Positions 12,894 to 36,395 of a stretch of 61,781 nt of DNA are shown here, in pieces. Both the position numbers and the translations under genes were made by a program. Within the stretch, counting starts at the first letter, position 1; every line of letters begins with the position of its first letter. Under the pieces are notes generated by a model. That model saw nothing but the letters and a program-made list of their open reading frames with translations, was not told where the DNA came from and made no database searches. This DNA is from a virus. The DNA is taken from IMG/VR virus record IMGVR_UViG_3300028374_000014, positions 1 through 61,781 of that record; one strand, 5' to 3'.

Positions 12894-14060
12894 CTATAGA
12901 TGAAAATCTTCGCTATTATCACTGAACAACTTATGAAACTCGCGGCTTGGCATCTTTTCATATTCTTCACGATATGGAACAACTCTGATATATTTATCGT
13001 CTTTCCCAAGCAAATGGCCATTCGTAATATATTCCTCTCCATCGATTGTAAGAACAGAGTATGCTGATGTTAATTTAGCGCGGGATGGGAACGGTCCCAC
13101 AAAACTAGAATCAGAAGCCCATTGTGGTTGCAGCATTAACTGAACAATGTTCCACGGCAAATCTGTGTTCTCCTCACCGTACGAGTGCCGTGTTACACCA
13201 CTTGCTTTCACTCTTGTCGCTCCGAGAATTTCTATAATATCTCGAATTAAAGGAAGATATTTTTCTTTCGGTGGAGTGCCGCTTTGACCTTGTATACCTT
13301 TTAACGTTTTTGACTCTGGCTCCCAAGTAGCAATCACCTTTGGGTTGTTTACTTTATCATACAAAAGGATCATTGATGCGTTTTCTTCTAGTGTCATTAC
13401 ACCCAGACTGCCGCAGTTCTTCATCTTTTTACCAACAGCGCGGCATTTCTTGCTTTTAGTGTCCACCCACTTGTATCCATTAGGGTATTTTTTAAGAACG
13501 TCGAAATTAGGCAATTGTGTCCGTTCGTAGAATTTTTCTTTAGCTTCCGAATATTCTAAATTTTTATAAGGCCCTAAATCCGTTAATTTACCGTCAATAA
13601 TCGCTTGGATAAATTCCGAATTCAAAACATAACTTAAATCACCAATCATGCGCTTTTCGATATCTTCAATGATGTTGTCTATCTCTTCATCCGTAAAAGC
13701 GATTCTTTCCCCTAAAAATTCAATATCATGAACTTCAACAAATTTTTGATTTTTCCATTTTGGGTGGTTATAGTTGTAAAACTTCTCGTATCGCGGATCG
13801 CAGCAGGGTAATTCTCTTAAACTTTCAAGAAATTTTTTAATTTCTATATTATCAAAAATATCTGTCCTAGTGAAATTTCCGGCCTTTTCGAGCCCCTTTC
13901 CATAATGATCTGTTGCCCACTTTGCCACCAAAAAACTATTCTTTCCAAAAAGCTTTTGAAAGATGCGAGCAATATCTGGAGGGAAACCCAAAATTCTTTT
14001 CATATTGCCTTGGGAGTCCTCTTTGACAACGCCTCTCCAATTTTCCATTAGCTGTCTCAT
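12894..14060 (-). CDS. Putative head-packaged cargo protein with capsid-targeting-like N-terminus, 388 aa
   Basis: The N-terminus MRQLMENWRGVVKE matches a peptide shared with six other proteins here, and a V-K-E site after residue 14 fits gp21-type prohead protease cleavage. The body is helical up to ~200. It then carries GYKWVDTKSKKC, GKKMKNCG, a beta segment ATWEPESKTLKGIQGQSGTPP and a C-terminal domain with HSYGEENTDLPW. The conserved Cys pair and Gly/Gln motifs suggest an enzyme or binding fold I cannot name. It sits between tail-completion and sheath genes with no obvious tail role. I infer that it is packaged in the head and delivered with DNA. The function is unknown. Confidence 0.6.
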   Translation of the reverse strand: MRQLMENWRGVVKEDSQGNMKRILGFPPDIARIFQKLFGKNSFLVAKWATDHYGKGLEKAGNFTRTDIFDNIEIKKFLESLRELPCCDPRYEKFYNYNHPKWKNQKFVEVHDIEFLGERIAFTDEEIDNIIEDIEKRMIGDLSYVLNSEFIQAIIDGKLTDLGPYKNLEYSEAKEKFYERTQLPNFDVLKKYPNGYKWVDTKSKKCRAVGKKMKNCGSLGVMTLEENASMILLYDKVNNPKVIATWEPESKTLKGIQGQSGTPPKEKYLPLIRDIIEILGATRVKASGVTRHSYGEENTDLPWNIVQLMLQPQWASDSSFVGPFPSRAKLTSAYSVLTIDGEEYITNGHLLGKDDKYIRVVPYREEYEKMPSREFHKLFSDNSEDFHL

Positions 14061-14063
14061 AAT

Positions 14064-14138
14064 TTAATACCTCGCGGCGACATACAGGACGCATAGGGCA
14101 AATAAGAAACCAACAACAATTTCTATAACTCCAATCAT
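14064..14138 (-). CDS. Micro-ORF: 24-aa single-span membrane peptide
   Basis: A 24-codon frame, MIGVIEIVVGFLFALCVLY followed by VAARY. It is almost entirely a hydrophobic helix. Its ATG overlaps the TGA of the gene at 14135 (ATGA), and it ends three bases before the ATG of the gene at 14060. It fills the whole 74-base gap between two genes, which favours it being real. Small phage membrane peptides can act in lysis, host inhibition or anchoring; no function can be assigned. Confidence 0.45.
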   Translation of the reverse strand: MIGVIEIVVGFLFALCVLYVAARY

Positions 14139-14968
14139 TGACTATACTTCCCAAAAAGTTCATCAAATTCTTCGTCGGTTAATACGCTTTCTTCAAAACT
14201 TATTTCTACTGCATTTTCCCGAATGGCGATCGCCGGCTGTTCGCGATTATCACCTTCACCGATTATGTAACCTTTCACACGAATAGGTATCTCGGCTTTA
14301 AATATTCTCTCTTCTTCGTCGAAATTCTCCAAGTTATCATTCTGACCAAAATCATCATCAAAATACGCTTCATATTTCCAATCACCATTCTTAACTAAGA
14401 AATACTTGTGGTTTCCAGCTTTCGTCAAAAACGGTGTAAGCATCTCATTCATTTGTTGTTGGTATTCACAACGAAGCACAACCACATAACTTAAATCTAG
14501 ATATACAATATTCGGAATCATAAAGTGCTCATATACGACCTTCTCGTTTTCTTTCAAAGGTGCAACAGCTTTAAAGTTTAGTTTTCCTTCTTTCCGAAGA
14601 GCCCGGGCACGCTCAAATTCCGACGTTTTTGGACCATTGATGCGTTTCGACCATGCAATCCTCATACCACCTTTCTTATCTGGTGTTTCAGGAACAGCTG
14701 CCCAATACTTTCCTTTGAAATTCAAGTTTTTTGATGTCTTTGCTCGACGTGTGGTCATTTGAGGCAAAATCAAAACACCCTTTGCATCGCGCAATCTCAA
14801 ATCTTTCTTAACCTGATATGCTCGCTCTGCGCCAGTCCATACGAAAGGCACAGGTTTCCACCCTTTGTTAGTTGTAGCGTGAATGTTTAATTCTTTTACA
14901 AAGTCTAACACTGCCTGATCGATATGTTCCAAAGTGGAAAGATCTAGATTTACTGTTTTATTTTTCAT
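14135..14968 (-). CDS. Probable tail completion / sheath terminator protein (gp15-like)
   Basis: A 277-residue protein from the ATG at 14968 (an in-frame ATG at 14980 is also possible). The N-terminal pattern VNLDLSTLEHIDQAVLDFV, then GWKPVPFVWTGAERA and RDAKGVLILPQM, is one I associate with tail-completion proteins that cap the sheath and tube at the neck. The length is near T4 gp15 (272 aa). The Asp/Glu-rich C-terminus (SVLTDEEFDELF) may be flexible. It lies in a neck/tail-completion stretch, one base after the ART-like gene. The assignment is by pattern and position. Confidence 0.6.
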   Translation of the reverse strand: MKNKTVNLDLSTLEHIDQAVLDFVKELNIHATTNKGWKPVPFVWTGAERAYQVKKDLRLRDAKGVLILPQMTTRRAKTSKNLNFKGKYWAAVPETPDKKGGMRIAWSKRINGPKTSEFERARALRKEGKLNFKAVAPLKENEKVVYEHFMIPNIVYLDLSYVVVLRCEYQQQMNEMLTPFLTKAGNHKYFLVKNGDWKYEAYFDDDFGQNDNLENFDEEERIFKAEIPIRVKGYIIGEGDNREQPAIAIRENAVEISFEESVLTDEEFDELFGKYSQ

Positions 14969-14969
14969 T

Positions 14970-15632
14970 TTAGATATCATCCTCGGGGAGCAACGACATT
15001 TGGCGAGCGCGGTGTTTCTTACTAGCAATATATTTCAGTATATTTTCACCGCCCACATCACGATGCCACTTTAATCCGTCTGACAACTTACCCCAAGCTA
15101 ACATGATGGCTTGTTCGGGCTTATACACAACCAAAACGGGACCATCAGTGCGTCCTGTAAAGATTAGCCCATCCAATTTCTCTATAGTTCCGTCATCATT
15201 AATCAATTGTTGTGCTAATCTGTATGCTATTTCACTAGTGTAATTATTATCCAAATTTGAGCGAATACCTTCATCATTTAAGAAGTCTTGTAACCCCAAA
15301 TCATGAAATTTTTGTTCTATTGTTCTATTGTCACCCATTTTTCTTGACACACTTTTATCCAACACCAAGAAACGATCTGTTATGCTCACTGCAAACTTAA
15401 TCACAATATCACCATAAAGTCCCGATCCTGTTGATCCGTTTTCTAAATCATAAGTTGCGTACAAAGCTTTCCCGTAGGACGCGTCTGTGTTTTTCTGTAA
15501 ACTATATCCCTGAGTAAGCATCGATTTTATATCTTTAAAAGAATTTGTCCCGTGATATACCGTAGCTTTCCTACTATAAACCCGTTCATTTATGGTTTTT
15601 CTCCAATTTTCCATGATAAGTTTAAGATGCAT
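14970..15632 (-). CDS. ADP-ribosyltransferase-like cargo protein with capsid-targeting-like N-terminus
   Basis: A 220-residue protein from the ATG at 15632, chosen for the AAGGA ribosome site 8 bases upstream. It opens MHLKLIMENWRKTINE, the shared cargo peptide, with an I-N-E site at residue 16, followed by RVYS. The rest resembles H-Y-E type ADP-ribosyltransferases: VYHGTN (His27), SYGKALYATYD (Tyr53/Tyr58) and VLVVYKPEQAIML (Glu173/Gln174). These transfer ADP-ribose from NAD to host targets. T4 Alt is also a head-packaged ADP-ribosyltransferase, though with a different (R-S-E) motif. The catalytic assignment is by motif only. Confidence 0.6.
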   Translation of the reverse strand: MHLKLIMENWRKTINERVYSRKATVYHGTNSFKDIKSMLTQGYSLQKNTDASYGKALYATYDLENGSTGSGLYGDIVIKFAVSITDRFLVLDKSVSRKMGDNRTIEQKFHDLGLQDFLNDEGIRSNLDNNYTSEIAYRLAQQLINDDGTIEKLDGLIFTGRTDGPVLVVYKPEQAIMLAWGKLSDGLKWHRDVGGENILKYIASKKHRARQMSLLPEDDI

Positions 15633-16116: not shown

Positions 16117-16130
16117 AATTTGTTCTCTCC

Positions 16131-17030
16131 TTAATCATGGCCGAAGCCTGCGTCAATAATTTTGATCACCTTTTTTTCATTGAACCCCAAATTATTGCTA
16201 TGAAAATCATCGGGATTAACATTGGCTACTCGCATTGCTTCCAAGAGCCGCGCGAAATTTGGATCAGGATTCTCATAATATTTGAACAAGGCGCTTAGTG
16301 CATCTTTATGCAACCGTTGTCCCTCTGGGTCTTTGTATAGTTTGTACGTACTAAATTGCAGTAGTGCTGATACTACTACCATACCATGTTTAATGCCACC
16401 AGAAGGTGGATAGTCAGACCTGTAAAGCTTTGTAACATTCCATTTATATTTCAATAATATCTTAACTGTATTATTAATGTCATGCGTTTTATGTCGTGAT
16501 CGTGCGAATTTCTGTAATTCATTACCAATAATGCTCGTAGGTTCAAAATTATTTGCTATCTTTTCACGGAATTGATCAGATATAGTAAATAATTTTGGGA
16601 ATAACATCTTGTATCGTTCTATTGAATTGTGTCCTTTACCTATTTGTTCTACATATTCGACAATAAACCACAAATAATCTCGGTCGTCGTACGCTTCAAT
16701 TTTAGGAAACGCATCAAGATTGAATTGATTGAATTTTCTAATTTCTTTTTTATTCTCGCCTATCGCTTTGTCGTATACTGATCTAACAATTTTAACAACC
16801 TCCCCACCGGGTGACTGGTAGGCCGCTCTGGTCAGGCCTTCGCCAAGGCAGGTGAAGTTATTGTTCTTAAAAAAGCGATAAAGACGAGAGTGTTTTTCTC
16901 TTAGGGTAATTTTTTTATGTTCTATTAGATTATCTAATTCATATGAATTCTGTATAAACGCATGCATTTCTTCAGAATACACATTTTCTTTGAGAACGCT
17001 TCTTCTGCAATTTTCAAATAGTTTTTGCAT
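16131..17030 (-). CDS. Protein-kinase-like cargo protein A, capsid-targeting-like N-terminus
   Basis: A 299-residue protein from the ATG at 17030, directly after the upstream stop. The N-terminus MQKLFENCRRSVLKE has an L-K-E site at residue 15, followed by NVYS. A kinase-type fold follows: a Gly-rich loop LGEGLTRAAYQS (62-73) with Lys80 in GGEVVKIV, a hinge-like YLWFIVEYVE (119-128), a catalytic-loop-like PDDFHSNNLG (273-282, Asp and Asn), and a DFG-like IIDAGFG (291-297). A paralogue lies at 31059-31901. Phage kinases can modify host RNA polymerase and other proteins (T7 gp0.7). Whether this one is active or a pseudokinase cannot be judged by eye. Confidence 0.6.
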   Translation of the reverse strand: MQKLFENCRRSVLKENVYSEEMHAFIQNSYELDNLIEHKKITLREKHSRLYRFFKNNNFTCLGEGLTRAAYQSPGGEVVKIVRSVYDKAIGENKKEIRKFNQFNLDAFPKIEAYDDRDYLWFIVEYVEQIGKGHNSIERYKMLFPKLFTISDQFREKIANNFEPTSIIGNELQKFARSRHKTHDINNTVKILLKYKWNVTKLYRSDYPPSGGIKHGMVVVSALLQFSTYKLYKDPEGQRLHKDALSALFKYYENPDPNFARLLEAMRVANVNPDDFHSNNLGFNEKKVIKIIDAGFGHD

Positions 17031-17031
17031 A

Positions 17032-18729
17032 TTATACAGGCTCCCAAAAGTTATATTTTTTATCAGGTGTCGCAATGTCGAATAAACGATCATCCAAGTT
17101 CGCATTTCTGTTATTAACCAACTTAGAGTTTGCATCAAGTGCAATCTTTCTAGTAAGTCCAAAAAACTTCTTTAAGTTCTTGTCACAATTTATAGCAGTG
17201 TCAAGAGTCAAAAGATATTCTGATCCATAATCAAGCGGACTTAAATCAAATCCAAATACGGCAGATGTAGGATTTTTTACAGGATCGAACCAAAGACTAC
17301 TCCGGGTTGATCCTATTTTGTAATCCAATCCAGACCGAACAGACCGCAAAGCTGATGCAAATTCTTTATCAATCATGAGCTCAGCAGCTTGCACCATTGA
17401 CACGAAAACAACTTTATATGAACGTCCTTTTATCAAAGTATTCGCAGAATCATTATAATATTTGCTTAACACTTCTAAAGTTTTTTCACGTTCAGCAGGG
17501 TCCGATATTGTTTTCAATGAATCATAGAATTTCTTAACGCAATTGTCCATATCGACGCCAAGCGTCGCTTCAACAAGTTTCAGTTTCTCTTCGAACGAGT
17601 ATTCCACCTGTTTCAACCCTAAATCAGACATTAAATTGATATCTACCTTGATAAATGTTGCAGGACCGCTGAATCGATATTCTTGCGTAAACCCTGTATC
17701 AGTTTTGTCAATAGATAAATTTCCATCTGAATATGTGGCGTAACCTCCGCTGTCTAGGTATAAGTTCTTAAATTGATAAGGTTCAATAATTTCTCCATTA
17801 TCTAACGTTATCTCGTCGCCGTCATTTACGAACGATTCAGCGGTTTCCATCAAAACTTTGGCATGTTGTTCATATTGGCTAACAGTATCTTGAATTGATT
17901 CTCTAATTTCACCCTGTGCAGTATACATAATTGGTTGGTATTTTTGTGACCACAAACCGTTCGTTAAACGATCCAACATCTTTTCACATGGTTGCAGTTT
18001 TTGACGATTAATTGGAATATCATGCATTTGTGCTATACGACGTGGAACATCCATTTGGCACATTTGTGCATCTTTAGCATTAAAGATTTCCTGTGGATTC
18101 TTTGCCAATTCGTCGACATCTTTTTCCAACTTTTGAGCCAAACCTTCCAATTTCTCTTTAGGATAATACACCAATGCTATCTTAAAATTATCTCGTGTTT
18201 CATTATCTGGCTTTTTGTTTATCATAAAGATAAAGTTAATTCCTCTATAAAGGGCATAGTTGCTAAATTGATTACTTTCTTTACCCGAAATACACCACTT
18301 AGTTGAAGCTCCGTAATAACAGCTAGCCTTGGTTGACAGAGGAGCAATAAATAGATATTTATCATCTTCGTATATTTTGATTGCGCCTGATTTAATGTCT
18401 TCACGTTTCTTCGTTTTTGATTTTCCCATAGATTGCAGTTTTTGCTGCAATTCAGGAAAACTCCATTGATAAATATCTTTTTCAGCACCTTGTAAACGTT
18501 GACGAACTTTGTGGAATCTTTGCGTCGTATCGATAACCTCTTTGGGACTGTGATTGTTTTTGATAGCTTGTTTTGCCATCCAATTAAGATACTTATCATC
18601 ACCGGAAGGATCATTATCTGACAATTGTTGAACAACCTCGATATCATCGGGATATCTTTTCATTATTTTGTCAATTCTTGCTTCCTGAAGAAAACCTCGG
18701 AAGTTATTGTATACTTTATTGTAACTCAA
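17032..18729 (-). CDS. Large cargo-like protein, capsid-targeting-like N-terminus, 565 aa
   Basis: The start is a TTG with a GGAGAAGAG ribosome site, overlapping the stop of a 50-aa gene (TTGA). The N-terminus SYNKVYNNFRGFLQE has an L-Q-E site at residue 16, followed by ARID, a divergent form of the shared cargo peptide. Residues ~130-185 carry LSTKASCYYGASTKWCIS, then FSNYALYRGINFIFMI. I recall this 'Y-G-x-x-T-K-W-C' motif from phage proteins of unknown function. The C-terminal half is Asp/Ser-rich and mixed alpha/beta. A head-packaged protein is my inference from the N-terminus and the cargo neighbours. Confidence 0.6.
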   Translation of the reverse strand: MSYNKVYNNFRGFLQEARIDKIMKRYPDDIEVVQQLSDNDPSGDDKYLNWMAKQAIKNNHSPKEVIDTTQRFHKVRQRLQGAEKDIYQWSFPELQQKLQSMGKSKTKKREDIKSGAIKIYEDDKYLFIAPLSTKASCYYGASTKWCISGKESNQFSNYALYRGINFIFMINKKPDNETRDNFKIALVYYPKEKLEGLAQKLEKDVDELAKNPQEIFNAKDAQMCQMDVPRRIAQMHDIPINRQKLQPCEKMLDRLTNGLWSQKYQPIMYTAQGEIRESIQDTVSQYEQHAKVLMETAESFVNDGDEITLDNGEIIEPYQFKNLYLDSGGYATYSDGNLSIDKTDTGFTQEYRFSGPATFIKVDINLMSDLGLKQVEYSFEEKLKLVEATLGVDMDNCVKKFYDSLKTISDPAEREKTLEVLSKYYNDSANTLIKGRSYKVVFVSMVQAAELMIDKEFASALRSVRSGLDYKIGSTRSSLWFDPVKNPTSAVFGFDLSPLDYGSEYLLTLDTAINCDKNLKKFFGLTRKIALDANSKLVNNRNANLDDRLFDIATPDKKYNFWEPV

Positions 18730-18881: not shown

Positions 18882-19184
18882 TTATGCATTAGTTTTCTTC
18901 TTATGTTGCTCTAACAAAAATCCCACGTAGTAATTCGGGAATAAAATCGTTAACATATTTTTATACGAATCTTCCCAATAAGACATTTGCTCATTATCAA
19001 TCTCTTGTACTTCATTGTTTCGTACTCGCACCAAATGGTGATCACGAGGGTCCACACGGTCGTAAAACTGATCCACAATACCTTGCAAAATCGGTTCCAG
19101 ACTGTTCATAAACCGCGTCTTTGTAAAGTGATCCTTTTTAGATAAGTCGAGGGTCTTATTCCAGTTTTCAAGCAATTTCTTCAT
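18882..19184 (-). CDS. Small cargo-like protein, 100 aa
   Basis: A 100-residue protein whose start MKKLLENWNKTLDLS matches the shared cargo peptide but lacks a [hydrophobic]-x-Glu site at residue 14-16. The rest is helical and charged, with SYWEDSYKNMLTILFPNYYVGFLLEQ near the end broken only by ordinary polar residues. No family recognised. It follows the neck protein by four bases. If the shared peptide is a packaging signal, this member may be packaged without trimming, or be a non-functional relative. The frame stays open after its TAA for another 51 codons (see 18726-18878). Confidence 0.55.
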   Translation of the reverse strand: MKKLLENWNKTLDLSKKDHFTKTRFMNSLEPILQGIVDQFYDRVDPRDHHLVRVRNNEVQEIDNEQMSYWEDSYKNMLTILFPNYYVGFLLEQHKKKTNA

Positions 19185-20617: not shown

Positions 20618-22354
20618 TTAACCTACAAGGTCACGTACCCAGACAATTCCGTACATATCAGGACGAACCATTTGCTTACCGTATCGAGTCATAACACCCT
20701 TACGTGGAACAAAGTCTTCCGTACCGAAGATAACCGGAGTCATTTGCATAGGCACATAAGGTGCATATACATAACCCGATTCTAGGAATGACGAGCCTTT
20801 TCTCCCTACAAGAATCAACTGACGTGGGAAGTAAGGGTCGACATAAATGTCAAACTTCTTATTCACACTACCAGCATTGTAGGATCCAGCGTCGCCCTTG
20901 TCGTCGCCGACTGTAACGTTACCCACAAATCCACGCGTGAATTCAAGGATTGATACAACTTCCGGTGAGCAGACGATGAAGTTAGCTCCGCCTCGGCGCG
21001 TCTTACGGTGCATAACCGCGCTGACGTCGTTGACAACTTCGACAAGTGATTGATACCACTCGGAAATGTTACCCGTGAAGTCAGGTGGCGCAGTAGTAGC
21101 AGAAATGTCTTCACCTGTTTGCGTGTTAAGGAAACGACCCGGCTTACGCGACCAGTATCGAAGGTCTGCTGTAGCACCCTTGATAAGATCTTCAAGCACT
21201 TCCATATTGATTTCAAGTTCAATATGTTCAGCAAGAACAGACGTTAACTCAACTTCAGCGTCGAGGTTGTGATAAGCGTTCAAATCTTGACCCAATTCTG
21301 GTGTCCACTTCGCTTTCAACTTACGCGTTACCGCTGTGATTGCGATGCTGTCTACCTTCAAGTCAAGCTCAGGAATACCTTCATCATTTTCCAGACCCCA
21401 GATATCGGCGCCTACGACAGAACCAACGGCTCCACCTGCGTCGAAGTTATCTGCGACTGGAGCGTCCCATGCGCTCGCAGCATCAAGTGCTGTTGCTGCG
21501 TCACCCTCTGTGTGCGAACCAGAGATCACACGAGCGACTACAAGCACTGTATCCTTAGACGACCCCGAAAGGGAAGTCAAACGTCGTACAAGCTTGTATG
21601 CGCCGGCTGAGTCACGGGTTGCAGAAGATGAAAGGTCGGTATCCGTGATAGCAACAAAGTTCTTTTCGCTGAACTCATTACCTGCACTTTTGAACGATGC
21701 CAATGGAACCGTCGCAATAGCAACCACAGAACCAGAAAGGTCCGGGTCGAAATTGACCAACTTATCGATATCAGCGTTTGAACCACTATTTGTAGACGCG
21801 CCGACAGTACCGGACGCTACAAGAGTTGTTGCCGCTGTGAAAGATGCAGTTGGGTATGTGTAACCATTGTTCATGTTGTATGCTGAACGCTCGTTGTTCA
21901 GAGCATCAAGCAACACACCACCAGTGATTTCAGCGCCAACTACGCCTTGACCATAAATCGAAGAACCAGCAGCTTGTGAAAGGCGGTCATTCGTGTATGT
22001 AAAGTCAAGGAAGAAGATCAGACCAGATGGCAAGCTCATCGGCTGAACAGACACAAGGTCGTTCGCAATAAGATTACCAAAGACGCGACGGACGATCGGG
22101 AATGCGACAGACGCAAAACCCTCAACATCACCGCCACCCATGGTCGATGCTTCTGTAAGGACTTGTTTATATTCCTTTACAATTTGTCCAGCTTGATTTT
22201 CCAAAAGTCGTGACATCGTAGATCGTCGCTTGTCGTCACCCAAACCTTCAAGAAGGCCCGTGTTTTCCCATTTGCGAAGCATACGCTCATTTTCTTTTGC
22301 AAGATTTCGCTGAACCATGTTTTCAGTTAATAGATTATATAGATCTCTATTCAT
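20618..22354 (-). CDS. Major capsid protein (gp23-like), 578 aa
   Basis: A 578-residue HK97-fold capsid protein of the T4 gp23 type. The ATG at 22354 is chosen because GGAG lies 11 bases before it; a TTG nine bases earlier is too close. The N-terminal ~68 residues (LLTENMVQRNLAKENE ... EYKQVLTE) form a helical delta region. L-T-E at 66-68, followed by ASTMGGGD, fits the gp21-type cleavage site (T4 gp23 is cut after Glu65). Then come VASVAFPIV-like and SLPSGLIFFLDFTY motifs, and the C-terminus MTRYGKQMVRPDMYG. A long Ala/Ser/Asp-rich insertion (~150-300) may form a surface domain. It follows the scaffold gene by 25 bases. Confidence 0.93.
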   Translation of the reverse strand: MNRDLYNLLTENMVQRNLAKENERMLRKWENTGLLEGLGDDKRRSTMSRLLENQAGQIVKEYKQVLTEASTMGGGDVEGFASVAFPIVRRVFGNLIANDLVSVQPMSLPSGLIFFLDFTYTNDRLSQAAGSSIYGQGVVGAEITGGVLLDALNNERSAYNMNNGYTYPTASFTAATTLVASGTVGASTNSGSNADIDKLVNFDPDLSGSVVAIATVPLASFKSAGNEFSEKNFVAITDTDLSSSATRDSAGAYKLVRRLTSLSGSSKDTVLVVARVISGSHTEGDAATALDAASAWDAPVADNFDAGGAVGSVVGADIWGLENDEGIPELDLKVDSIAITAVTRKLKAKWTPELGQDLNAYHNLDAEVELTSVLAEHIELEINMEVLEDLIKGATADLRYWSRKPGRFLNTQTGEDISATTAPPDFTGNISEWYQSLVEVVNDVSAVMHRKTRRGGANFIVCSPEVVSILEFTRGFVGNVTVGDDKGDAGSYNAGSVNKKFDIYVDPYFPRQLILVGRKGSSFLESGYVYAPYVPMQMTPVIFGTEDFVPRKGVMTRYGKQMVRPDMYGIVWVRDLVG

Positions 22355-22379: not shown

Positions 22380-23981
22380 TTAATCGTTTAAAATTCCAGC
22401 TAGTTTCTTCCAACGCCCGGAGGTGTTTTCTGATACTATTGCCTTCTCTTCCTCTGCCCTCGGTCTACGAGAGTTTTGGAGCACTGATGATGCTGTTGGT
22501 TTATTCTTCAATGCTTCTGTGAGTGGATTATGATCTCTTCTCTTCATATCTGAGAGAGATCCCGCTGCACTTTCTTGAAGCTTAAATAAACGTTGAGCTT
22601 CACCAACTGTTGTGGCATCCGAAATTGCTTCGACAATCTTGTGTTTTTGCCGCTCATTCAGGGAGTTGTTTCCAAATACCTTCTGTTGCAACTGTAACTT
22701 AACGTTCTCTATATTAAGTTGTTGCATCAAATCTGCTACTTCTAGCAGCTTCTTCTTATAACTATTAGCTTTATTCTCCAAATTCCGATTTTCTTTTATA
22801 TATTTTTTGCTAATACGTTTTAATTGTGCTATTTTCTTTGATTCATTCACATAATCGTGAGTATCATTTTGTGTTCTTCGATCGCCCGGTGCGGAATGTG
22901 CTTTCTTCACCTTATCTTCCGCATCGTCATCATCTGATTTGCCGGGGTTATTAAGACGCGCTAATAACTTGTCAAATTCGTCATCAAAGTCTGCGTCACT
23001 ACGTGGGGACCAACCGGATGGTTGCTCTTCGACATCCGCGGTCAATCCTTCACTAACTTCTGCGTCAGAGACATCTTTATCAGAATATCCGCGTCCAACG
23101 ATTTCAGCCAATTCTTCATCTAACTCAATTTCTAATTCTTCTTGAAATGGTTTCTCGTTTTTTGTCACTTCTGTGTCTTCCCGTCCATAGTCGGGGCCTG
23201 CAACAGCAGTGCCGCTTGTTTGTTTTTGTCGTTGATTAATTTTATCCCATTGGTTACCAAACTTTTCGAACTCTGCATTGCGTTTTCCTTTTCTATCGAA
23301 ATAAGCGTCATCTTTTTCAACTGGAGTAAATTCACCTTTACGGGCATGAGCTTGGTCAGCCTTTGCAACGAGGCGGGCGGAACGTTCTTCTGGAGTCTCA
23401 TCAGCAAATGGCACACCTTCGTCCAAATACTCTTCAAACAATGATTCATCTAATTCGAATTCTTGCAAAAAGCTTTCTTCGCTATTTTCTGCGCCGGCCA
23501 ACTCTTGTGCAGCATCCTCATGAGACTGAGGGCCGGTCATTCCGCCGGGACCACCTTTGCTTGTATCCATCGTGTCGCCGTCTGTGCTCATGCCCATTAA
23601 GTCGTCAAAATCGATTTCAATTTCTTCTTCGTCTTCTGGACAAGGACACAAATCTTCACCATCACCGAATGACATTGGAACTTGATTATCCAAATAAGAA
23701 TTATTCCCAGCTTCAGGGTATTCCAAATCATCCTCAAAACCGAACATTTCAGGTTCTTCACCCATTTCGAAATCGTCATCGGGTCCAGCGAAACCAAGAT
23801 CTGGTTCTGGCTCTGGTTGCTCATCGAGGATTGACTCGGCAATTTTGCCCTCCAAAATCTGGTTCATATTGGACCTGATCTCAGACGCATATTTGCCTAC
23901 AAGATCTGTCTCAGCTTGTTGCCGAGCGGCCTCTCTTAATTTTTGTGACTCTATAAAAGCTTCTTTAAGAAGTGAAGACAT
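22380..23981 (-). CDS. Scaffold / prohead core protein (gp22-like), 533 aa
   Basis: A 533-residue highly acidic, low-complexity protein directly upstream of the capsid gene, the standard place of the scaffold. The start ATG at 23981 has a CAGGAG ribosome site. The N-terminus SSLLKEAFIESQKLREAARQ is helical, the middle (60-350) is Asp/Glu/Gly-rich, and the C-terminal ~170 residues form a coiled coil (LKRISKKYIKENRNLENK) then SLNERQKHKIVEAISDATT and a Ser/Arg-rich tail. T4 gp22 has the same build and is degraded by gp21. The LNERQKH motif also occurs in the protein at 32991-33839, hinting at a shared head-related interaction. Confidence 0.82.
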   Translation of the reverse strand: MSSLLKEAFIESQKLREAARQQAETDLVGKYASEIRSNMNQILEGKIAESILDEQPEPEPDLGFAGPDDDFEMGEEPEMFGFEDDLEYPEAGNNSYLDNQVPMSFGDGEDLCPCPEDEEEIEIDFDDLMGMSTDGDTMDTSKGGPGGMTGPQSHEDAAQELAGAENSEESFLQEFELDESLFEEYLDEGVPFADETPEERSARLVAKADQAHARKGEFTPVEKDDAYFDRKGKRNAEFEKFGNQWDKINQRQKQTSGTAVAGPDYGREDTEVTKNEKPFQEELEIELDEELAEIVGRGYSDKDVSDAEVSEGLTADVEEQPSGWSPRSDADFDDEFDKLLARLNNPGKSDDDDAEDKVKKAHSAPGDRRTQNDTHDYVNESKKIAQLKRISKKYIKENRNLENKANSYKKKLLEVADLMQQLNIENVKLQLQQKVFGNNSLNERQKHKIVEAISDATTVGEAQRLFKLQESAAGSLSDMKRRDHNPLTEALKNKPTASSVLQNSRRPRAEEEKAIVSENTSGRWKKLAGILND

Positions 23982-29059: not shown

Positions 29060-29279
29060 TTTTCAATCCATTTTTTTGTCGACGATATGCAGCATTCGCT
29101 CGTTTTCTTCGTTTTTTGTCCGAAGGTTTTTCAAAGAATCGTTTCTCTTTCACGATTTCATGAATCCCTTCATCTTCTACTTGTTGCATCAATTTGCGAT
29201 ACGCTTTAGATAAATCTGTGTTTTTGTCTAAATGTACCACGATTCCTTCCCACTCTTTGTTTCTTCGGAATCTACTCAT
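29049..29279 (-). CDS. rpsU: Phage-encoded ribosomal protein bS21 homologue
   Basis: A 76-residue, strongly basic protein. The start ATG at 29279 has GGAG seven bases upstream. It matches the bS21 family pattern: VVHLDKNTDLSKAYRKLMQQ, then G(I)HEIVKEKRFFEKPSDKKR and KRANAAYRRQK. In bacteria bS21 sits on the 30S platform near the anti-Shine-Dalgarno end of 16S rRNA and helps initiation. bS21 is a known recurring ribosomal protein in phage genomes, where it is thought to replace the host copy and bias translation. It is odd that it sits inside the late head operon, overlapping a probable core protein gene and a virion-type gene. Confidence 0.82.
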   Translation of the reverse strand: MSRFRRNKEWEGIVVHLDKNTDLSKAYRKLMQQVEDEGIHEIVKEKRFFEKPSDKKRRKRANAAYRRQKNGLKNGR

Positions 29280-30003
29280 TTGCATTCTCCTGTGTCCCGG
29301 TATTTTTTATTGCTTTCTTTTCCCATTTTTTTTCACCCATTTGTAAAAATCGATTCATTTTCCTTGGTGACCAAATTCCTTTGTTGCCAGCCAACTGTTT
29401 AATAATATTGATATCCAAACCTTCACCTTGTGTTGCAGCCGATGTTTGAGCGGACATGAGACCAGAAGCCTCATTTAATGTCATACCTTTCTTCGGTGCT
29501 ACCATACCGATGTTGTCGTCATCTGGAGGCAATTGAACATTTTGCAAAGTGCTCCAATCCGGTTGATTTTGTTGTACTATTTGTTGTTGGGGAACTGTCT
29601 GTTGTTTCTGTTGTTGCTGGGTTGGGACTTGTTCCGGCGCAGTTCGAGCAAATTTACTAGCCATACCGTTGGCACGTTGACTAAGATGCTGATCTAATTC
29701 AGAATTATTTCGAATTTCTTGAATATGTTGTTTCAATTTTTGATCTGACTGCTGAACGCGCTGCTGCTGAGGTTGTGCTGTGTATTGTTGTGGTTGTTGC
29801 ATCATTGGTGCAGTTGTTTTAGCAATGCCTTTTGCTACCTCAGTGATAACGTGACTAATTACACCACCTCGAAGAACAGATTCCTGAATTTTATCTTGAA
29901 GGTATGATTCCTCCAAAATAAGTTCTTCTATCGTTTCTTCTACCATCTCCCGAACAATCGGTTTTATGATTCTTCTTAAATCTGACCGCTTTAATGTAGT
30001 CAT
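29272..30003 (-). CDS. Gln-rich probable prohead core protein, 243 aa
   Basis: A 243-residue protein right after the prohead protease. N-terminus: LKRSDLRRIIKPIVREMVEE, a motif partly shared with the gene at 38222 (LKRSEIEQIIKEEL). Residues ~70-160 are Gln/Pro-rich and disordered, and the C-terminus has a basic patch (KGIWSPRKMNRFLQMGEKKW). Candidate gp21-type sites (L-I-L-E, V-I-T-E) lie in the first 60 residues. T4 has core proteins (gp67/gp68) near its protease, so a core or scaffold-accessory role is inferred. No recognised family. Confidence 0.55.
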   Translation of the reverse strand: MTTLKRSDLRRIIKPIVREMVEETIEELILEESYLQDKIQESVLRGGVISHVITEVAKGIAKTTAPMMQQPQQYTAQPQQQRVQQSDQKLKQHIQEIRNNSELDQHLSQRANGMASKFARTAPEQVPTQQQQKQQTVPQQQIVQQNQPDWSTLQNVQLPPDDDNIGMVAPKKGMTLNEASGLMSAQTSAATQGEGLDINIIKQLAGNKGIWSPRKMNRFLQMGEKKWEKKAIKNTGTQENANE

Positions 30004-30004
30004 A

Positions 30005-30604
30005 TTATACTCCTAGTATATCATTCAAAATTCTGTTGACCTTGTAATTTTTAGTCCATATTCTCGGATCTCGATTCTCCCTCAATGTAACACGTTCCAT
30101 GAACGCGCCTTGAGTCGATGGATCCGAAACAAAATCAAAACATATAAGTTGAAAATCATCTTCTACCAAAACATTGCCGCCTTGATCTCTAGTTGAACCC
30201 AAACCACGGGACGAAATACCAATTTTAATATCCGCCTCAAAAAGCTTTCTTAATGTTTCTCCAGCAGGAGTTTCAAGTATCTCTACTTTTCCTTTAACAT
30301 CTTTACCTTCCATCCAAATATCAGTGATTACGTGTGAAACATTTTTCAATGATATAACAGATTCATCAGCGTGGTCCAACTCACCAAGGGCGCGGCGTTC
30401 TTTTACAAGTTGTTTGTAATTCTCTATTTCTCTTTGCAAGATGGCATACGGGTATACACGACCATTGCCGTTCTGAGCGTCTGCCCGTTGCAGCACACCA
30501 GCAACAATATATTTGTTTCGGTCGCCAAGCTCTTGTCGCTCCTTGAGAATTTCTAAATCATTCTCAAAGACCATACATTCTCTTAATCCGTACTTTTCTT
30601 TCAT
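30005..30604 (-). CDS. Prohead core protease (gp21-like, S80 type)
   Basis: A 199-residue serine protease of the T4 gp21 type, which digests the scaffold and trims capsid and internal proteins during head maturation. Visible signatures: YIVAGVLQRADAQNGNGRVYP (31-51, given in part), a conserved-His motif ELDHAD (His78), and IGISSRGLGS (128-137) carrying the catalytic Ser. The size matches gp21 (212 aa). The known cleavage rule for the family is [LI]-x-Glu. Such sites lie in the capsid protein (Glu68) and at residue 14-16 of six cargo-like proteins in this window. The protease gene follows a 22-codon micro-ORF and a possible promoter. Confidence 0.9.
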   Translation of the reverse strand: MKEKYGLRECMVFENDLEILKERQELGDRNKYIVAGVLQRADAQNGNGRVYPYAILQREIENYKQLVKERRALGELDHADESVISLKNVSHVITDIWMEGKDVKGKVEILETPAGETLRKLFEADIKIGISSRGLGSTRDQGGNVLVEDDFQLICFDFVSDPSTQGAFMERVTLRENRDPRIWTKNYKVNRILNDILGV

Positions 30605-30783: not shown

Positions 30784-31062
30784 CTAACTATAGGTGTGAT
30801 CGACCCTCATTCCATTATCTCCAAAAAGCTTATCTAAAACGTATGTGGTGCCGGAGCTAATAAATCCAAAAAACAAAGAGTGTATCAATCCAGCCCACGG
30901 AGACGTGAAAAACAACGAAACAAGAACTCCGGCCCAAAATCCCATGCACATGCTACACTTGAATAAATACCAATCAGGACGGATACTGTCAAATATTTTA
31001 CCATATAATAGCATATTGGTTAACCCATAACAAACTAAAATGAACAAGATTAAATCAATCAT
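30784..31062 (-). CDS. Inner-membrane protein, DUF1360-like, 92 aa
   Basis: A 92-residue membrane protein with two or three hydrophobic segments (LILFILVCYGLTNMLLYG at 4-21; FWAGVLVSLFF; LIHSLFFGFISSG). Between them is K-C-S-M-C-M-G-F-W-A-G, a Cys-x-x-Cys-x-G-x-W-x-G motif typical of DUF1360 small phage and bacterial membrane proteins. Function unknown. Its ATG overlaps the TGA of the kinase-like gene upstream (ATGA). Its neighbours suggest late expression. Confidence 0.65.
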   Translation of the reverse strand: MIDLILFILVCYGLTNMLLYGKIFDSIRPDWYLFKCSMCMGFWAGVLVSLFFTSPWAGLIHSLFFGFISSGTTYVLDKLFGDNGMRVDHTYS

Positions 31063-31901
31063 CCAACCTCTCCGAATGCAATATCGAACAATTTAATGTT
31101 ATAATCTTCATCGCAGCCGACATTGGGAGAGTAGAAGTCTCTTTGATCAAGTTGTTCTTCGACAAAAGCGTTTCTTAATCTAAAAAAGTTAGGATCGGGG
31201 TTATTGTAATATTCATACAGCTTTTCGATAGATTCTTTATTATCTTGTTGGTGTTCGTCGCCCAGTGATACCCGGTAGTGATCATAATTCAATGATCTCA
31301 AAAGCTCTTGCATCATCCTAGCCAAAGTTTTTGACTTTGTATCTGTTGTGATATGTTGTTGTTTCAGTTTATAGAATTCCAACATTTTTCGTACTATTTC
31401 TAGGCCGTGGTGACTAAAATGACCTTTTCTACCGCTTATACCTTCTACAACTGATGTTAATTTGGGGAACATTTTCTCCATTGTCTTTGATGGTTCATCT
31501 GACAGTGGGATAACCTCTTCCACTACAAACCACAAATAATCTTTTGTATCGTATTCCATTACTTTAGGAAAAATACCGTATTTATCCCTATTGAAGATTT
31601 CAATTTCTATTTTATTCTGTTTTCTTGGACTTTGCGATAATTCATCAGGTCTATCATTAATATACAAAACCATCTTTAAAATTTCACGTTCTCGGGTCCA
31701 ATATATCTTTCTAAAAGATCCCTCTTTTCCCGGGATAAGTTCACTTTTTTTCGTGTCCATGTACTGATGAAGTATTTTCAGACGCTTCAAAGGATTGCTA
31801 AATTTCTCTGTTTTTCTCGATAGTCTGATAAAATCACGTAATTCCGAAGAATATACGTCTTCTGTCAAGAATCTTCTCCAACTTTCAAACAACAATTTCA
31901 T
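31059..31901 (-). CDS. Protein-kinase-like cargo protein B, capsid-targeting-like N-terminus
   Basis: A 280-residue protein from the ATG at 31901 (the codon before is TTG), overlapping the upstream TGA. It opens MKLLFESWRRFLTE with an L-T-E site at residue 14, followed by DVYS, nearly as in the paralogue at 16131. The kinase-like elements are conserved in order: PGKEGSFRKIYW (Gly-rich loop region), Lys76 in EILKMVLY, hinge YLWFVVEEV (122-130), catalytic-loop-like QRDFYSPNVG (Asp255, Asn260), and DFG-like LFDIAFG (Asp273). The His expected two residues before the catalytic Asp is replaced. Paired with 16131 it forms a small cargo kinase family, probably delivered with DNA. Confidence 0.6.
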   Translation of the reverse strand: MKLLFESWRRFLTEDVYSSELRDFIRLSRKTEKFSNPLKRLKILHQYMDTKKSELIPGKEGSFRKIYWTREREILKMVLYINDRPDELSQSPRKQNKIEIEIFNRDKYGIFPKVMEYDTKDYLWFVVEEVIPLSDEPSKTMEKMFPKLTSVVEGISGRKGHFSHHGLEIVRKMLEFYKLKQQHITTDTKSKTLARMMQELLRSLNYDHYRVSLGDEHQQDNKESIEKLYEYYNNPDPNFFRLRNAFVEEQLDQRDFYSPNVGCDEDYNIKLFDIAFGEVG

Positions 31902-32125: not shown

Positions 32126-32126
32126 T

Positions 32127-32393
32127 CTATAATCCCGTTAATTCCATGTTGTTAAGTGTTGACTTCAACCTGACCACGCTGTAGTTATCTAGATTAACAT
32201 GTTTTTGAGTATATCCAGCCGATAATTCTTCTTTGCGGTTCGGCGAAACTGTTCTCATGTAATCTATTCGCACAACAGCTTGACCAAGCTTTTCTGCTTT
32301 ATAACACCAAAATCTTGCTTTGTCTGTGACAAAATATATTCTATTAGATAGTAACCCTTGCGAATTGTATAAGCAGTGCCTTTCCTTATTCAT
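32127..32393 (-). CDS. Hypothetical protein, 88 aa
   Basis: An 88-residue soluble protein with a basic, aromatic first half (NRIYFVTDKARFWCYKAEKL) and a polar second half. No family recognised. Its start overlaps the stop of the gene at 32390 by four bases and its stop is one base from the next start, so it belongs to the same late operon between portal and protease. Confidence 0.5.
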   Translation of the reverse strand: MNKERHCLYNSQGLLSNRIYFVTDKARFWCYKAEKLGQAVVRIDYMRTVSPNRKEELSAGYTQKHVNLDNYSVVRLKSTLNNMELTGL

Positions 32394-33839: not shown

Positions 33840-35785
33840 TACTCATCCTCTATAGTTATAATTTCGGTTGGCTTGTCGTCTTCTTGTTTTTTAACAAAAT
33901 TACGAATCTCAGTAACCATACTTTTAACTTCATTTGATTTTCTATCTTGTTGTTCCATAACAACAGGAGGTTTGTTTCCTTGAGCTAATTCGAATAAGCC
34001 GTTTAGCCCGGGCATGCCAGCACGAACGTTTCTGCGTGTATCACGAGTCTTCTCGTGGCCCCATTTTGCTTTATTTGAGCGTTTGCGAGCACCCATATCT
34101 CTGCGGTCGTCTTTCACCTTGCGGTATTTTTTACCTTTAGCTCCGGGGGTTGTATACTCGTCACGTTTGCCGGGTGTCGCTAATAGATCATTATCTTCTA
34201 TGTCTGAATCACCTTCGTCTCCGAAATCATCTCCGAAACCGCCCATGTCGTCTCCCATTCCCATGTCGTCTTCCATTCCTCCGATGTCGCCCATATCATC
34301 ATCTAGGCCGCCCATACCGCCGAATCCTGCCTCGCCTGCTGCGGCGATTTGTTCAAGTTCTGATTCATATTTCAGATCATGCTTCTTTTCACGCTTCATG
34401 CGGACAATATCTTCATGCGGCAATTGGAAAACCTTTTCCATTGTGTAACGATGACTAAATCCAACTTCTTGCATCGCCTGCGCAGCGTCTACTTTTGTGC
34501 GAACAGTTTCAAGTTCTTGCAATTCAGCAATTTTCGACGGATTGTTCAATGATAAAGAAAACGACAGTGCATCTTCTTCAGGATAACCTAACAAAATCAA
34601 ATGGATAACACCGATTTTCTCCAATTCAGAAACAACTGGTTTTTGAAGGCGCAAAACTGTTCGAGCGAATCGAATATCTTTCTGTGATAGTGTTTCTTTG
34701 TCTTCAGATGATGAGTCATCCCGAATAAGATAGGATTGTGGAATTTTTAGTGCTGCAATAAGTTTTGCTTGAAGATATTTAATGTCATCAATATCGCCTG
34801 TGTATTGTCCACCTTTGAGTGTTTCAATTCTTGTGCCGGTCTCGCCACGAACAGGAATAAAGTAATCTTCATCAACTGACAACGGATTATATCTCAAATC
34901 AACGCGACCAGTGTCTTCATCAACAATTTGGTGACGCTTCATGTTAGTAATGATTTCTTCCATGTACTGTTCCACTTGTTGTGGGGGAACGGCACCAACA
35001 TCGATATAGAATACTCGACGTTCAGGTGATCGAACGATACGATACGCCATGACTGAATCTTCCAGCAAAATTAACTGTCGCCAAATACGACGTGCTGGTT
35101 CGAAGAAGCTAGTTCCATATGGTGCATATTTATCGTGACCAAGAATTCGGAAGTGAAGAATTTGCCAATTTTCGAATGTCATACCAGCGGAGTTCCACTG
35201 GAATTGTACATACATTGGATTTGTTTCGTCTTCTCCTTCCATTCTTTCAATTTCTTCCGGTGGAACTGGCAAGATTGTACTAACACCGTAATCAGGATCG
35301 ATATCGGCATACAAAAAGAAGTCGCCATATTTGCACATTGAGCGGACCCAATAATACAAGTTATGTTCAACATTCAAAACGTTATAATAGAGATTTTCTA
35401 AGATAACCTTCAACTCTTCATTTTGGCAATCGACCCTTACCAGTGGTGACAACGGTGAACTTGTTGTCATTTCATCAGAAACAATGTCAAGCGCTGAGGC
35501 CATAATCGGCTCGTATTCCATTTGATCGAATTCCCTATATCGCTCTGCACGGTTCTGGTTGGCCATACGTTGCGTTTGTAGGTTTTGGAAGGGGTTGTAC
35601 CCGCGTTTCTTGAAGTGTTGCCCTGAGAGCGACTTGAAGCGGTTTGAGAACACGTTCATGTGTGTTCTGCGGAGCTTGTGGTATGTTTGTGTCCGTCTAT
35701 TCGTCAGCGGACCACTGAACATACGAGTTAATCGCTTGAACAGGGTTGTCTCATGATTCTTGGGATTGCGTTTTTGATCTGCCAT
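33839..35785 (-). CDS. Portal protein (gp20-like), 648 aa
   Basis: A 648-residue portal. Typical gp20-type signatures: REFDQMEYEPIMASALDIVSDE near residue 80-100, PYGTSFFEPARRIWRQLILLEDSV, then RSPERRVFYIDVGAVPPQQV, LRYNPLSVDEDYFIPV and a QAKLIAALKIPQSYL helix. It forms the dodecameric DNA gate and binds TerL. The C-terminal ~150 residues are unusual: a Gly/Asp/Met-rich stretch (GGLDDDMGDIGGMEDDMG) followed by a basic region (KGKKYRKVKDDRRDMGARKR). T4 gp20 (524 aa) lacks this extension. A TATAAGAA box lies upstream. Confidence 0.92.
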   Translation of the reverse strand: MADQKRNPKNHETTLFKRLTRMFSGPLTNRRTQTYHKLRRTHMNVFSNRFKSLSGQHFKKRGYNPFQNLQTQRMANQNRAERYREFDQMEYEPIMASALDIVSDEMTTSSPLSPLVRVDCQNEELKVILENLYYNVLNVEHNLYYWVRSMCKYGDFFLYADIDPDYGVSTILPVPPEEIERMEGEDETNPMYVQFQWNSAGMTFENWQILHFRILGHDKYAPYGTSFFEPARRIWRQLILLEDSVMAYRIVRSPERRVFYIDVGAVPPQQVEQYMEEIITNMKRHQIVDEDTGRVDLRYNPLSVDEDYFIPVRGETGTRIETLKGGQYTGDIDDIKYLQAKLIAALKIPQSYLIRDDSSSEDKETLSQKDIRFARTVLRLQKPVVSELEKIGVIHLILLGYPEEDALSFSLSLNNPSKIAELQELETVRTKVDAAQAMQEVGFSHRYTMEKVFQLPHEDIVRMKREKKHDLKYESELEQIAAAGEAGFGGMGGLDDDMGDIGGMEDDMGMGDDMGGFGDDFGDEGDSDIEDNDLLATPGKRDEYTTPGAKGKKYRKVKDDRRDMGARKRSNKAKWGHEKTRDTRRNVRAGMPGLNGLFELAQGNKPPVVMEQQDRKSNEVKSMVTEIRNFVKKQEDDKPTEIITIEDE

Positions 35786-35794
35786 ATGTAAACC

Positions 35795-35802
35795 TTCTTA
35801 TA
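35795..35802 (-). promoter_or_regulatory. Candidate late promoter upstream of portal
   Basis: TATAAGAA on the minus strand in the 43-base gap between the cargo gene at 35829 and the portal ATG at 35785; the same bases also run into the AAGAAGG ribosome site. Similar TATAA cores precede the sheath, neck and protease genes. Low confidence, since an AT-rich leader would look alike. Confidence 0.3.
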
Positions 35803-35828
35803 GTGGTTTTCCTAATAAAATTTTCATC

Positions 35829-36395
35829 TTAGAACATTCTATCCGTGTTGATTATTGGAGCACCGTCCTTATTATGAATTAACCTACCGTTGACATAATA
35901 AAAAGCTTGGTAGTATTCTTCGTCAGTTTTTGGTCGCCTTTGTTTTATAAATTGTGCAGGTCCGAGATATCTAGTTGTTTCATTTCTTCTAAGGAATGTG
36001 CATTTTAGGCCATGCGGTTTTTTGTCATCATACCTGATATATTTAAATCGAAGTTCGGGCATGCCGAATGTTCGGTCCATGGAAAAAGGATATATTATTT
36101 CATAATCTGATAATATCTGTATGTATTCCTTTGGAAGATTTTCTTCTGGGATTGGCTCGATGTCATACCATCCACCATCATATACAAATCCTTCATCGTT
36201 GGTGGTAACAAAGCCATCCAACTCTGGGCCTACCATACATGTTGTTATAACCGGGTGGGGCGCGGTGTCAGAATCTTTTACCAGTGCCAATACCAGACCA
36301 GCGTATTTTTTCCTTAAAAGCTTATTATAATGATCCAAAAAGCCGTTGTTGGATTCACTAATAACTTTTCTCCAACTTTCGAACAGTTTCTTCAT
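35829..36395 (-). CDS. Putative head-packaged cargo protein, 188 aa
   Basis: A 188-residue protein opening MKKLFESWRKVISE, the clearest form of the shared cargo peptide, with an I-S-E site at residue 14. The rest is mixed alpha/beta: ITTCMVGPELDGFVTTNDEG, a GGWYDIEPIP strand, and a C-terminal EEYYQAFYYVNGRLIHN. No enzyme motif recognised. The start overlaps the terL stop (ATGA) and the portal gene follows, so it is made with the head proteins. I infer packaging into the head and delivery with DNA. Confidence 0.55.
   Translation of the reverse strand: MKKLFESWRKVISESNNGFLDHYNKLLRKKYAGLVLALVKDSDTAPHPVITTCMVGPELDGFVTTNDEGFVYDGGWYDIEPIPEENLPKEYIQILSDYEIIYPFSMDRTFGMPELRFKYIRYDDKKPHGLKCTFLRRNETTRYLGPAQFIKQRRPKTDEEYYQAFYYVNGRLIHNKDGAPIINTDRMF

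What the first reader, a model, noticed from the sequence alone, without database searches (positions are those of the whole stretch)
12894..36395. A family of head-packaged 'cargo' proteins marked by a shared N-terminal capsid-targeting-like peptide
Seen: seven proteins with unrelated bodies (12894, 14970, 16131, 17032, 18882, 31059, 35829) start with variants of M-x-x-L-[MFL]-E-[NS]-W-R. In six, a [VIL]-x-E site follows at residue 14, 15 or 16: V-K-E, I-N-E, L-K-E, L-Q-E, L-T-E, I-S-E. Three continue with VYS. The major capsid protein has L-T-E at Glu68, where T4 gp23 is cut (Glu65), and a gp21-type protease is at 30005. Known: T4 internal proteins and Alt carry a ~10-residue capsid-targeting sequence cleaved by gp21 at [LI]-x-E. 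Inference: this phage packages and injects an expanded effector set, including two kinase-like and one ADP-ribosyltransferase-like protein. The peptide differs from the T4 sequence (MKTYQEFIxEA), so it may be a distinct, undescribed tag.
Basis: partly seen in the sequence, partly recalled or inferred. Interest (0 to 1): 0.9.

Follow-up and report, generated by a model that had tools for sequence, protein, structure and literature searches.

The report
Address tag for proteins packed in phage heads
Marine relatives of phage T4 appear to mark many unrelated enzymes with a short, removable address label that loads them into the virus head for delivery into the host; the label is a longer, undescribed form of the one known from T4, and it lets such cargo be read directly from a genome.

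Summary
The window is a 62-kb T4-like phage fragment with a gp23 capsid protein and an S77/gp21 protease. Six gene starts carry the M-x-x-L-[MFL]-E-[NS]-W tag (0.05 expected in shuffles). Five of these, plus the divergent 17032 protein, have [VIL]-x-E at residue 14-16. The tag is widespread in uncultured marine T4-like phages. In 120 non-redundant proteins collected on residues 1-8 only, [LIVM]-x-E falls at W+6 in 90 (background about 2 per position). All 15 tagged contigs of at least 150 kb encode the protease. Only two phage-derived contigs among 84,980 cellular genomes carry it.

The tag is not wholly distinct from T4's. Its W8, [FYH]11, [LIV]12 and E14 fall on T4 CTS residues Y4, F7, I8 and E10, the residues mapped for targeting and processing. 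A second class (MKITKxxLKxIIKEEL) shares this register and the same genomes. Homologous cargo swaps tag classes.

Experimental bridge: enzymes found by others in cyanophage virions (SAM lyase, kinase, NMNAT) start with T4-type tags, and that SAM lyase is homologous to a class A cargo.

Packaging and cleavage of the window's own proteins remain untested. Its kinase and ART assignments are weak.

The parts
31059..31901 (-). class A tagged protein, MKLLFESWRRFLTE|D (tag codons 31860-31901); body resembles a protein kinase by motif only
   Evidence: translation; full core W-x-x-F-L-x-E14; paralogue of 16131; AF2 pLDDT 49; no Pfam hit at gathering score
35829..36395 (-). class A tagged protein, MKKLFESWRKVISE|S (tag codons 36354-36395), unknown body, between terminase and portal
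   Evidence: no Pfam or PHROG hit
12894..14060 (-). class A tagged protein, MRQLMENWRGVVKE|D (tag codons 14019-14060); weak similarity to a 1146-aa protein of G012
14970..15632 (-). class A tagged protein, MHLKLIMENWRKTINE|R (tag codons 15585-15632); homologous to tagged L149/L113 proteins, ART-like by motif only
   Evidence: 31% over 137 aa, E 1.7e-13 to L149; alignment A3; AF2 pLDDT 43
16131..17030 (-). class A tagged protein, MQKLFENCRRSVLKE|N (tag codons 16986-17030), W replaced by C and one residue inserted; paralogue of 31059
17032..18729 (-). divergent, T4-like tag MSYNKVYNNFRGFLQE|A; homologues elsewhere start with IWKQF/SWRNYVNE-type tags
   Evidence: core F-R-G-F-L-Q-E at E16; homologues; PHROG 17056 1e-14, function unknown
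18882..19184 (-). class A tag without cleavage site, MKKLLENWNKTLDLS
30005..30604 (-). S77 (T4 gp21-type) prohead protease
   Evidence: PF03420 1.4e-24; phrog_207 head maturation protease 5e-49
20618..22354 (-). gp23-type major capsid protein; predicted cleavage V-L-T-E68|A (Glu codon 22151-22153)
   Evidence: PF07068 1e-72; alignment by eye with T4 gp23 FLTE65|A
22380..23981 (-). probable gp22-type scaffold, MSSLLKEAFIESQKLREA
   Evidence: position next to gp23 and N-terminal resemblance to T4 gp22 and to orthologues in L298/L299; no PHROG hit
29272..30003 (-). probable prohead core protein next to gp21 with a class B-like N-terminus, MTTLKRSDLRRIIKPIVREMVEETIEELILEE
   Evidence: class B-like gene downstream of gp21 in 43 of 76 protease loci
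38222..38542 (-). class B tagged small protein, MKLKRSEIEQIIKEELTRS

Best explanation
The peptide is a removable capsid-targeting sequence. Late in infection, tagged proteins bind the prohead core through their N-terminal helix. The gp21-type protease then cuts after [LIV]-x-E, freeing the mature enzyme inside the head, from where it is ejected with the DNA. The tag is an N-terminally extended form of the T4 CTS. Its conserved W8, F/Y11, L/I12 and E14 occupy the places of T4 Y4 and F7 (targeting) and I8 and E10 (processing). Marine T4-like phages use it, with a second class (MKITKxxLKxIIKEEL), to load a changing set of host-modifying enzymes. Shown here: the motif, its spacing, its register, its distribution, tag exchange on homologous cargo, and homologous cargo in published virion proteomes. 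Inferred: binding, cleavage and injection in this phage.
For: (1) In 120 non-redundant proteins collected on residues 1-8 only, [LIVM]-x-E ends at W+6 in 90, background about 2 per position; most exceptions carry insertions and keep [LIV]-x-E at W+7 to W+11. (2) Without any tag filter, [LIV]-x-E peaks at residue 14 over 1,610 genes of 9 genomes, 98 against about 32. (3) Register: aromatic/His at W+3 in 108, LIVM at W+4 in 100, E at W+6 in 91 of 115; T4 IPIII mutants map targeting to residues 4 and 7 and processing to 8 and 10 (PMC9026906); T4 MKTYQEFIAEA read directly. (4) 15/15 tagged contigs of at least 150 kb have S77, 18/20 of at least 100 kb; all 23 tagged contigs with a substantial gp23 have S77. 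(5) In GTDB only two contigs match, both phage; one has the protease next to the tagged gene. (6) Homologous cargo with exchanged tags. (7) Two conserved genes beside gp21 have N-termini like classes A and B. (8) In S-CREM2, 5 of 6 annotated starts with the T4 register are MS-detected virion proteins (52 of about 220 overall), including SAM lyase, kinase and NMNAT; the S-SCSM1 NMNAT and S-CRM01 kinase, also reported in virions, start MKSFLQFLKEA and MISFDQFLSEK; the S-CREM2 SAM lyase and NTase are homologous to class A cargo.
Against: No virion of a class A or B phage has been analysed, and no isolate with the exact tag was found. 18882 and some others lack a site. In the window the W+3 position is mostly V, T or S rather than aromatic. 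Among large control contigs S77 is also common (2 of 4 of at least 100 kb), so co-occurrence mainly shows that the tag is confined to T4-like phages. One tagged fragment with gp23 cut at its edge (G085) has no detectable S77 in 85 kb. The authors of the cyanophage proteomes note that such enzymes might be contaminants.
Confidence: 0.87

Rival explanations
1. The shared start is a DNA- or RNA-level element, such as a translation enhancer or a recombination cassette, and the peptide is a by-product.
For: Identical residues share codons more often than expected in G007, G018 and G019 (0.63-0.71 against 0.42-0.46). T4-type phages are known to shuffle modules.
Against: In the window, G032, G022 and G012 codon identity equals genome expectation. 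The [LIV]-x-E site is kept when residues are inserted. Different residues at the DNA level (classes A and B) keep the same protein register.
Confidence: 0.04
2. The tag addresses proteins to another part of the virion or infected cell (tail tube, baseplate, membrane) and the [LIV]-x-E motif is part of a binding helix, not a cleavage site.
For: Some tagged proteins lack a site. Several cargo genes in the window lie between gp23 and the tail sheath.
Against: The site matches the S77 specificity, the capsid protein has the same L-T-E|A site, and the conserved positions match the T4 CTS mutagenesis. Prohead core genes beside gp21 have similar N-termini.
Confidence: 0.07
3. The proteins are a paralogous family with a conserved N-terminal domain that arose by duplication, not an address tag.
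For: Two window proteins (16131, 31059) are paralogues.
Against: 83 class A bodies fall into many folds: NUDIX, SAM lyase, ART-PolyVal, Fic, Pkinase, 2H phosphoesterase, amidase, HAD. Mean column identity over the whole alignment is 5%, with only E6, M1, W8 and E14 conserved. Homologous bodies occur with class A, class B, T4-type or no tag.
Confidence: 0.02

Closest known systems
T4 capsid targeting sequence (IPI, IPII, IPIII, Alt)
   Same: N-terminal, short, on unrelated bodies, ends in [LI]-x-E, gp21-type protease in the same genome; positions -6, -3, -2 and 0 relative to Glu coincide with T4 Y4, F7, I8 and E10
   Different: Four residues longer with a conserved MKxLxEN lead; Trp instead of Tyr/Phe at -6; used on several proteins per genome (1-6 class A calls in the nine genomes) with much wider enzyme content; sequence not found in isolates
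Cyanophage virion-associated enzymes (S-CREM2 SAM hydrolase, kinase, NMNAT; S-SCSM1 NMNAT; S-CRM01 kinase)
   Same: Same kinds of cargo; SAM lyase and NTase homologous to class A cargo; N-terminal F-x-x-F-[LIF]-x-E register
   Different: Short T4-type tag (Glu10), not the ENWR form; the tag was not noted in the passages read of the two proteome papers
phiKZ/SPN3US head propeptides
   Same: Propeptides removed after Glu by a protease distantly related to gp21 (PMC9026906, PMC5694885)
   Different: Cleavage at S/A-x-E, mostly much longer propeptides, other phage lineage
Polyvalent proteins of phages (PMC5512222)
   Same: Overlapping effector domains, e.g. ART-PolyVal, predicted to be virion-packaged
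   Different: Multidomain fusions; no capsid-targeting peptide described in the text searched

Membership tests
T4-type capsid targeting sequence | Short N-terminal peptide shared by otherwise unrelated proteins | tested here: met
   120 non-redundant members, many folds
T4-type capsid targeting sequence | [LI]-x-E cleavage motif at a fixed place at the end of the peptide | tested here: met
   [LIVM]-x-E at W+6 in 90 of 120; unbiased peak at residue 14
T4-type capsid targeting sequence | Targeting residues (T4 Y4, F7) and processing residues (I8, E10) conserved in register | tested here: met
   weaker in the window itself, where W+3 is often V, T or S
T4-type capsid targeting sequence | gp21/S77 protease encoded in the same genome | tested here: met
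   15/15 contigs of at least 150 kb; window itself
T4-type capsid targeting sequence | Ten-residue sequence close to MKTYQEFIAE | tested here: not met
   Class A is 14 residues with a different lead and Trp at -6; so a variant, not a copy
T4-type capsid targeting sequence | Tagged proteins present in the head and cleaved after Glu | not testable with these tools
   No virion proteome of a class A phage; indirect support from cyanophages
S77 prohead protease (gp21) | PF03420 above gathering score | tested here: met
   87.2 bits, cut-off 27
phiKZ-type head propeptides | S/A-x-E cleavage motif | tested here: not met
   LIVM at the P3 position (W+4) in 100 of 115

The most novel reading that the evidence does not exclude
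Marine T4-like phages use an address code of at least two undescribed extended capsid-targeting classes (A: MKxLxENWRKYLNE; B: MKITKxxLKxIIKEEL) that share the register hydrophobic-x-x-hydrophobic-hydrophobic-x-Glu with the T4 peptide and resemble the N-termini of conserved prohead core genes beside gp21. Through this code roughly 6-13 proteins per genome, including SAM lyases, kinases, Fic proteins, ADP-ribosyltransferases and NUDIX enzymes, would be loaded and delivered, and cargo swaps tags by recombination.
Probability: 0.62. Interest if true: 0.86.

Novelty: new variant of a known kind. Interest (0 to 1): 0.78.

Why it matters
It turns the head cargo of uncultured T4-like phages into something that can be read from sequence. 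Hundreds of hypothetical proteins become predicted injected effectors with a predicted mature N-terminus. It also offers an explanation for a puzzle in cyanophage proteomics, where SAM hydrolase, kinases and NMNAT keep turning up in virions and might have been dismissed as contaminants: those checked here start with a T4-type targeting peptide. And it suggests that the packaging signal is a small register of four residues, open to direct mutational test.

Tried and rejected
Searching named phages for the exact class A or class B consensus: none; pattern scan of nine relatives including T4: none. Literature text search for the peptide strings: only chance or non-phage hits, which does not exclude figures or closed papers. 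AlphaFold models of the window kinase-like and ART-like proteins came out at pLDDT 49 and 43, so no fold search was run on them. The DNA-cassette idea was tested by codon identity and not supported overall. G085, G075 and G080 were examined as possible counterexamples: G075 and G080 share 72-77 proteins with tagged genomes but lack the head module; G085 stays undecided. The general statistic '[LIV]-x-E in MS-detected versus undetected S-CREM2 proteins' is weak (P 0.02-0.19); only the strict T4 register is informative, and that test was made after seeing the data. The residue-14 peak of class B is partly built into its search pattern; its further peaks at residues 18 and 22 are not.

Full report
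What the window is. It is a 61,781-base IMG/VR virus record with a gp23-type capsid protein (PF07068, 1e-72), an S77 prohead protease (PF03420, 87 bits, cut-off 27) and genes that look like terminase, portal, scaffold, sheath and tape measure in T4-like order on the minus strand (by sequence and position). Nearest named relatives by gp23 are Microcystis phage Mel-JY01, Flavobacterium phages immuto, Rhodothermus phage RM378 and jumbo metagenomic genomes, all below 60% identity.

The observation. Six starts match M-x(2-4)-[LIVM]-x-E-[NSGD]-[WFC] against 0.05 expected in shuffles; the seventh protein (17032) has only the core F-R-G-F-L-Q-E. Six of the seven have [VIL]-x-E at residue 14, 15 or 16; 18882 has none. 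16131 and 31059 are paralogues. The capsid protein has V-L-T-E68|A where T4 gp23 has F-L-T-E65|A.

Distribution. From all loci held at that point, 120 non-redundant tagged proteins were collected using residues up to W only. The motif [LIVM]-x-E ends at W+6 in 90 of them, against about 2 at other positions. Most of the rest carry insertions of one to a few residues before the same motif, for example WRKYQKEILHE and WRRFKKDILNE. A filter-free count over 1,610 predicted genes of nine genomes shows a peak of [LIV]-x-E at residue 14 (98 against about 32).

Co-occurrence with the protease. All 15 tagged contigs of at least 150 kb encode S77, and 18 of 20 of at least 100 kb; the two others share 72-77 proteins with tagged genomes but lack gp23 and the head module. 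All 23 tagged contigs with a substantial gp23 match have S77. One fragment with gp23 cut at the contig edge (G085) shows none. Controls: S77 in 3 of 24 permuted-pattern contigs (2 of 4 of at least 100 kb), so the result mainly says that the tag is confined to T4-like phages. In 84,980 cellular genomes a longer pattern (about 0.02 chance hits expected, my estimate) hits two contigs, both phage-derived; in one the S77 protease lies two genes downstream.

Relation to T4. Mutational work summarised in PMC9026906 maps IPIII targeting mainly to residues 4 and 7 and processing to 8 and 10 of MKTYQEFIAE (sequence read). Counting back from the cleaved Glu, class A has W at -6, F/Y/H at -3 (108 of 115), LIVM at -2 (100 of 115) and Glu at 0 (91 of 115). 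The same register appears in short forms on homologous bodies (MDKWFRYINE, MRKWWEFIEE, MTDFKNKWNKYLTE). The tag is therefore best seen as an extended T4-type CTS.

A second class. Many genes of the same genomes start MK[IL]xKxxLKxIIKEE[LI], with [LIV]-x-E at 12-14 and often again at about 18 and 22. Read in register they have L at -6 and I at -3 and -2. A and B genes sit next to each other in islands (G012, G032, G007). The window has one such gene (38222) and a class B-like core gene beside gp21 (29272). In protease loci, a B-like gene lies downstream of gp21 in 43 of 76, and a gene starting like MSDWSSFxxDxxxxDxWRxYLNE in a smaller set. The tags may copy N-termini of prohead core proteins; this is inference.

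Modularity. Homologous bodies carry different tags: L050_10600 (A) against G022_111104 (B), 54% over 254 aa; deoxyribonucleotidase with A, a shorter W form, or none; SAM lyase with A or degenerate forms. Codon identity within tags is at genome expectation in four of seven genomes tested and above it in three, so selection acts on the peptide, with some recent duplication likely.

Cargo. Among 83 class A proteins Pfam finds NUDIX, SAM lyase (PF23780), ART-PolyVal, Fic, Pkinase, 2H-SAK, amidase_2, HAD_SAK and DUF3293; PHROGs adds deoxyribonucleotidase, methyltransferase, ParB-like and polynucleotide-kinase-like. Most have no hit. The window's own bodies have none at the gathering score.

Experimental bridge. 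The S-CREM2 virion proteome (PMC10665884, Table 3) contains SAM hydrolase, APH/ChoK-like kinase and cytidylyltransferase. Their N-termini are MKDFDSFLEEF, VKRFDAFLTEE (GTG start) and MKNFSSFLTEA; ORF13 (MKDLHSFLTEQ) and ORF136 (MQTFSMFFSED) are also MS-detected. Over the whole genome six annotated starts fit the strict T4 register, the five above and ORF175 (55 aa, not detected). With 52 of about 220 proteins detected, 5 of 6 has a hypergeometric probability of about 0.003 (my calculation; the register came from T4, but the test was made after inspecting MS hits; one search gives 0.0006 for 5 of 5 without ORF175). The S-SCSM1 NMNAT detected by MS (PMC9602691) starts MKSFLQFLKEA, and the S-CRM01 kinase reported in virions (as cited in PMC10665884) starts MISFDQFLSEK. 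The S-CREM2 SAM lyase is homologous to the class A-tagged SAM lyase (33% over 158 aa, 2e-13), and MS-detected ORF156 to a class A-tagged nucleotidyltransferase (30% over 235 aa, 5e-32). The authors list contamination as an alternative; a shared targeting peptide argues against it.

Mechanism and confidence. Shown: peptide, site, register, distribution, exchange, and homologous cargo in virions. Inferred: binding to the prohead core, cleavage by S77, ejection with DNA, and the benefit to the phage (for example SAM removal against restriction-modification, as proposed for S-CREM2). Confidence that class A is a capsid-targeting and processing peptide: 0.87.

Noticed in passing
L300 (LR756508.1, 484-kb uncultured T4-like genome) 1-41608; window 38222-38542 and 29272-30003: A second N-terminal class, MK[IL]xKxxLKxIIKEE[LI]xxVLxE, on about twenty or more unrelated small proteins in a 41-kb stretch; also present in tagged marine genomes and in this window.
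   Followed up: partly
L433/L435 (S-CREM2), L436 (S-CRM01), L437 (S-SCSM1), L441 (P-SSM2), L440 (P-TIM68): Enzymes reported in cyanophage virions (SAM hydrolase, kinase, NMNAT), and homologues in P-SSM2 and P-TIM68, start with a T4-type targeting peptide, mostly MKx[FY]xxF[LIF]xE; not mentioned in the passages of the two proteome papers read.
   Followed up: partly
L283:1966-2544 (G022): S-adenosylmethionine lyase (PF23780, 5e-14) with a class A tag: a candidate injected anti-restriction enzyme.
   Followed up: partly
L431 5281-8919 (minus strand): A 1213-aa protein in the head module starting MKNFNNIWRNYLTE|TKLRVFDFDDTL, a HAD-like start joined to a long unknown body; the gp23-bearing contig shows no S77 protease in 85 kb.
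   Followed up: partly
L306, L307 (GTDB MAG contigs PBSV01000031.1, PAAD01000063.1): Phage contigs binned into bacterial genomes; L306 is a cargo island with several class A tags and one class B tag and a 461-aa ART-like protein (ART by eye only).
   Followed up: no
window 40010-40882: Patatin-like phospholipase start (MKRALVLSGGGSKGAYQAGALKHLI ... GVSVGALNG), by eye.
   Followed up: no
L242:11291-14731 (G012) and orthologues in G025, G032: Conserved proteins of about 1,140-1,180 aa starting with NWFxxLxEE-type peptides and a second L-x-E a few residues later; no PHROG hit for the G012 one.
   Followed up: no
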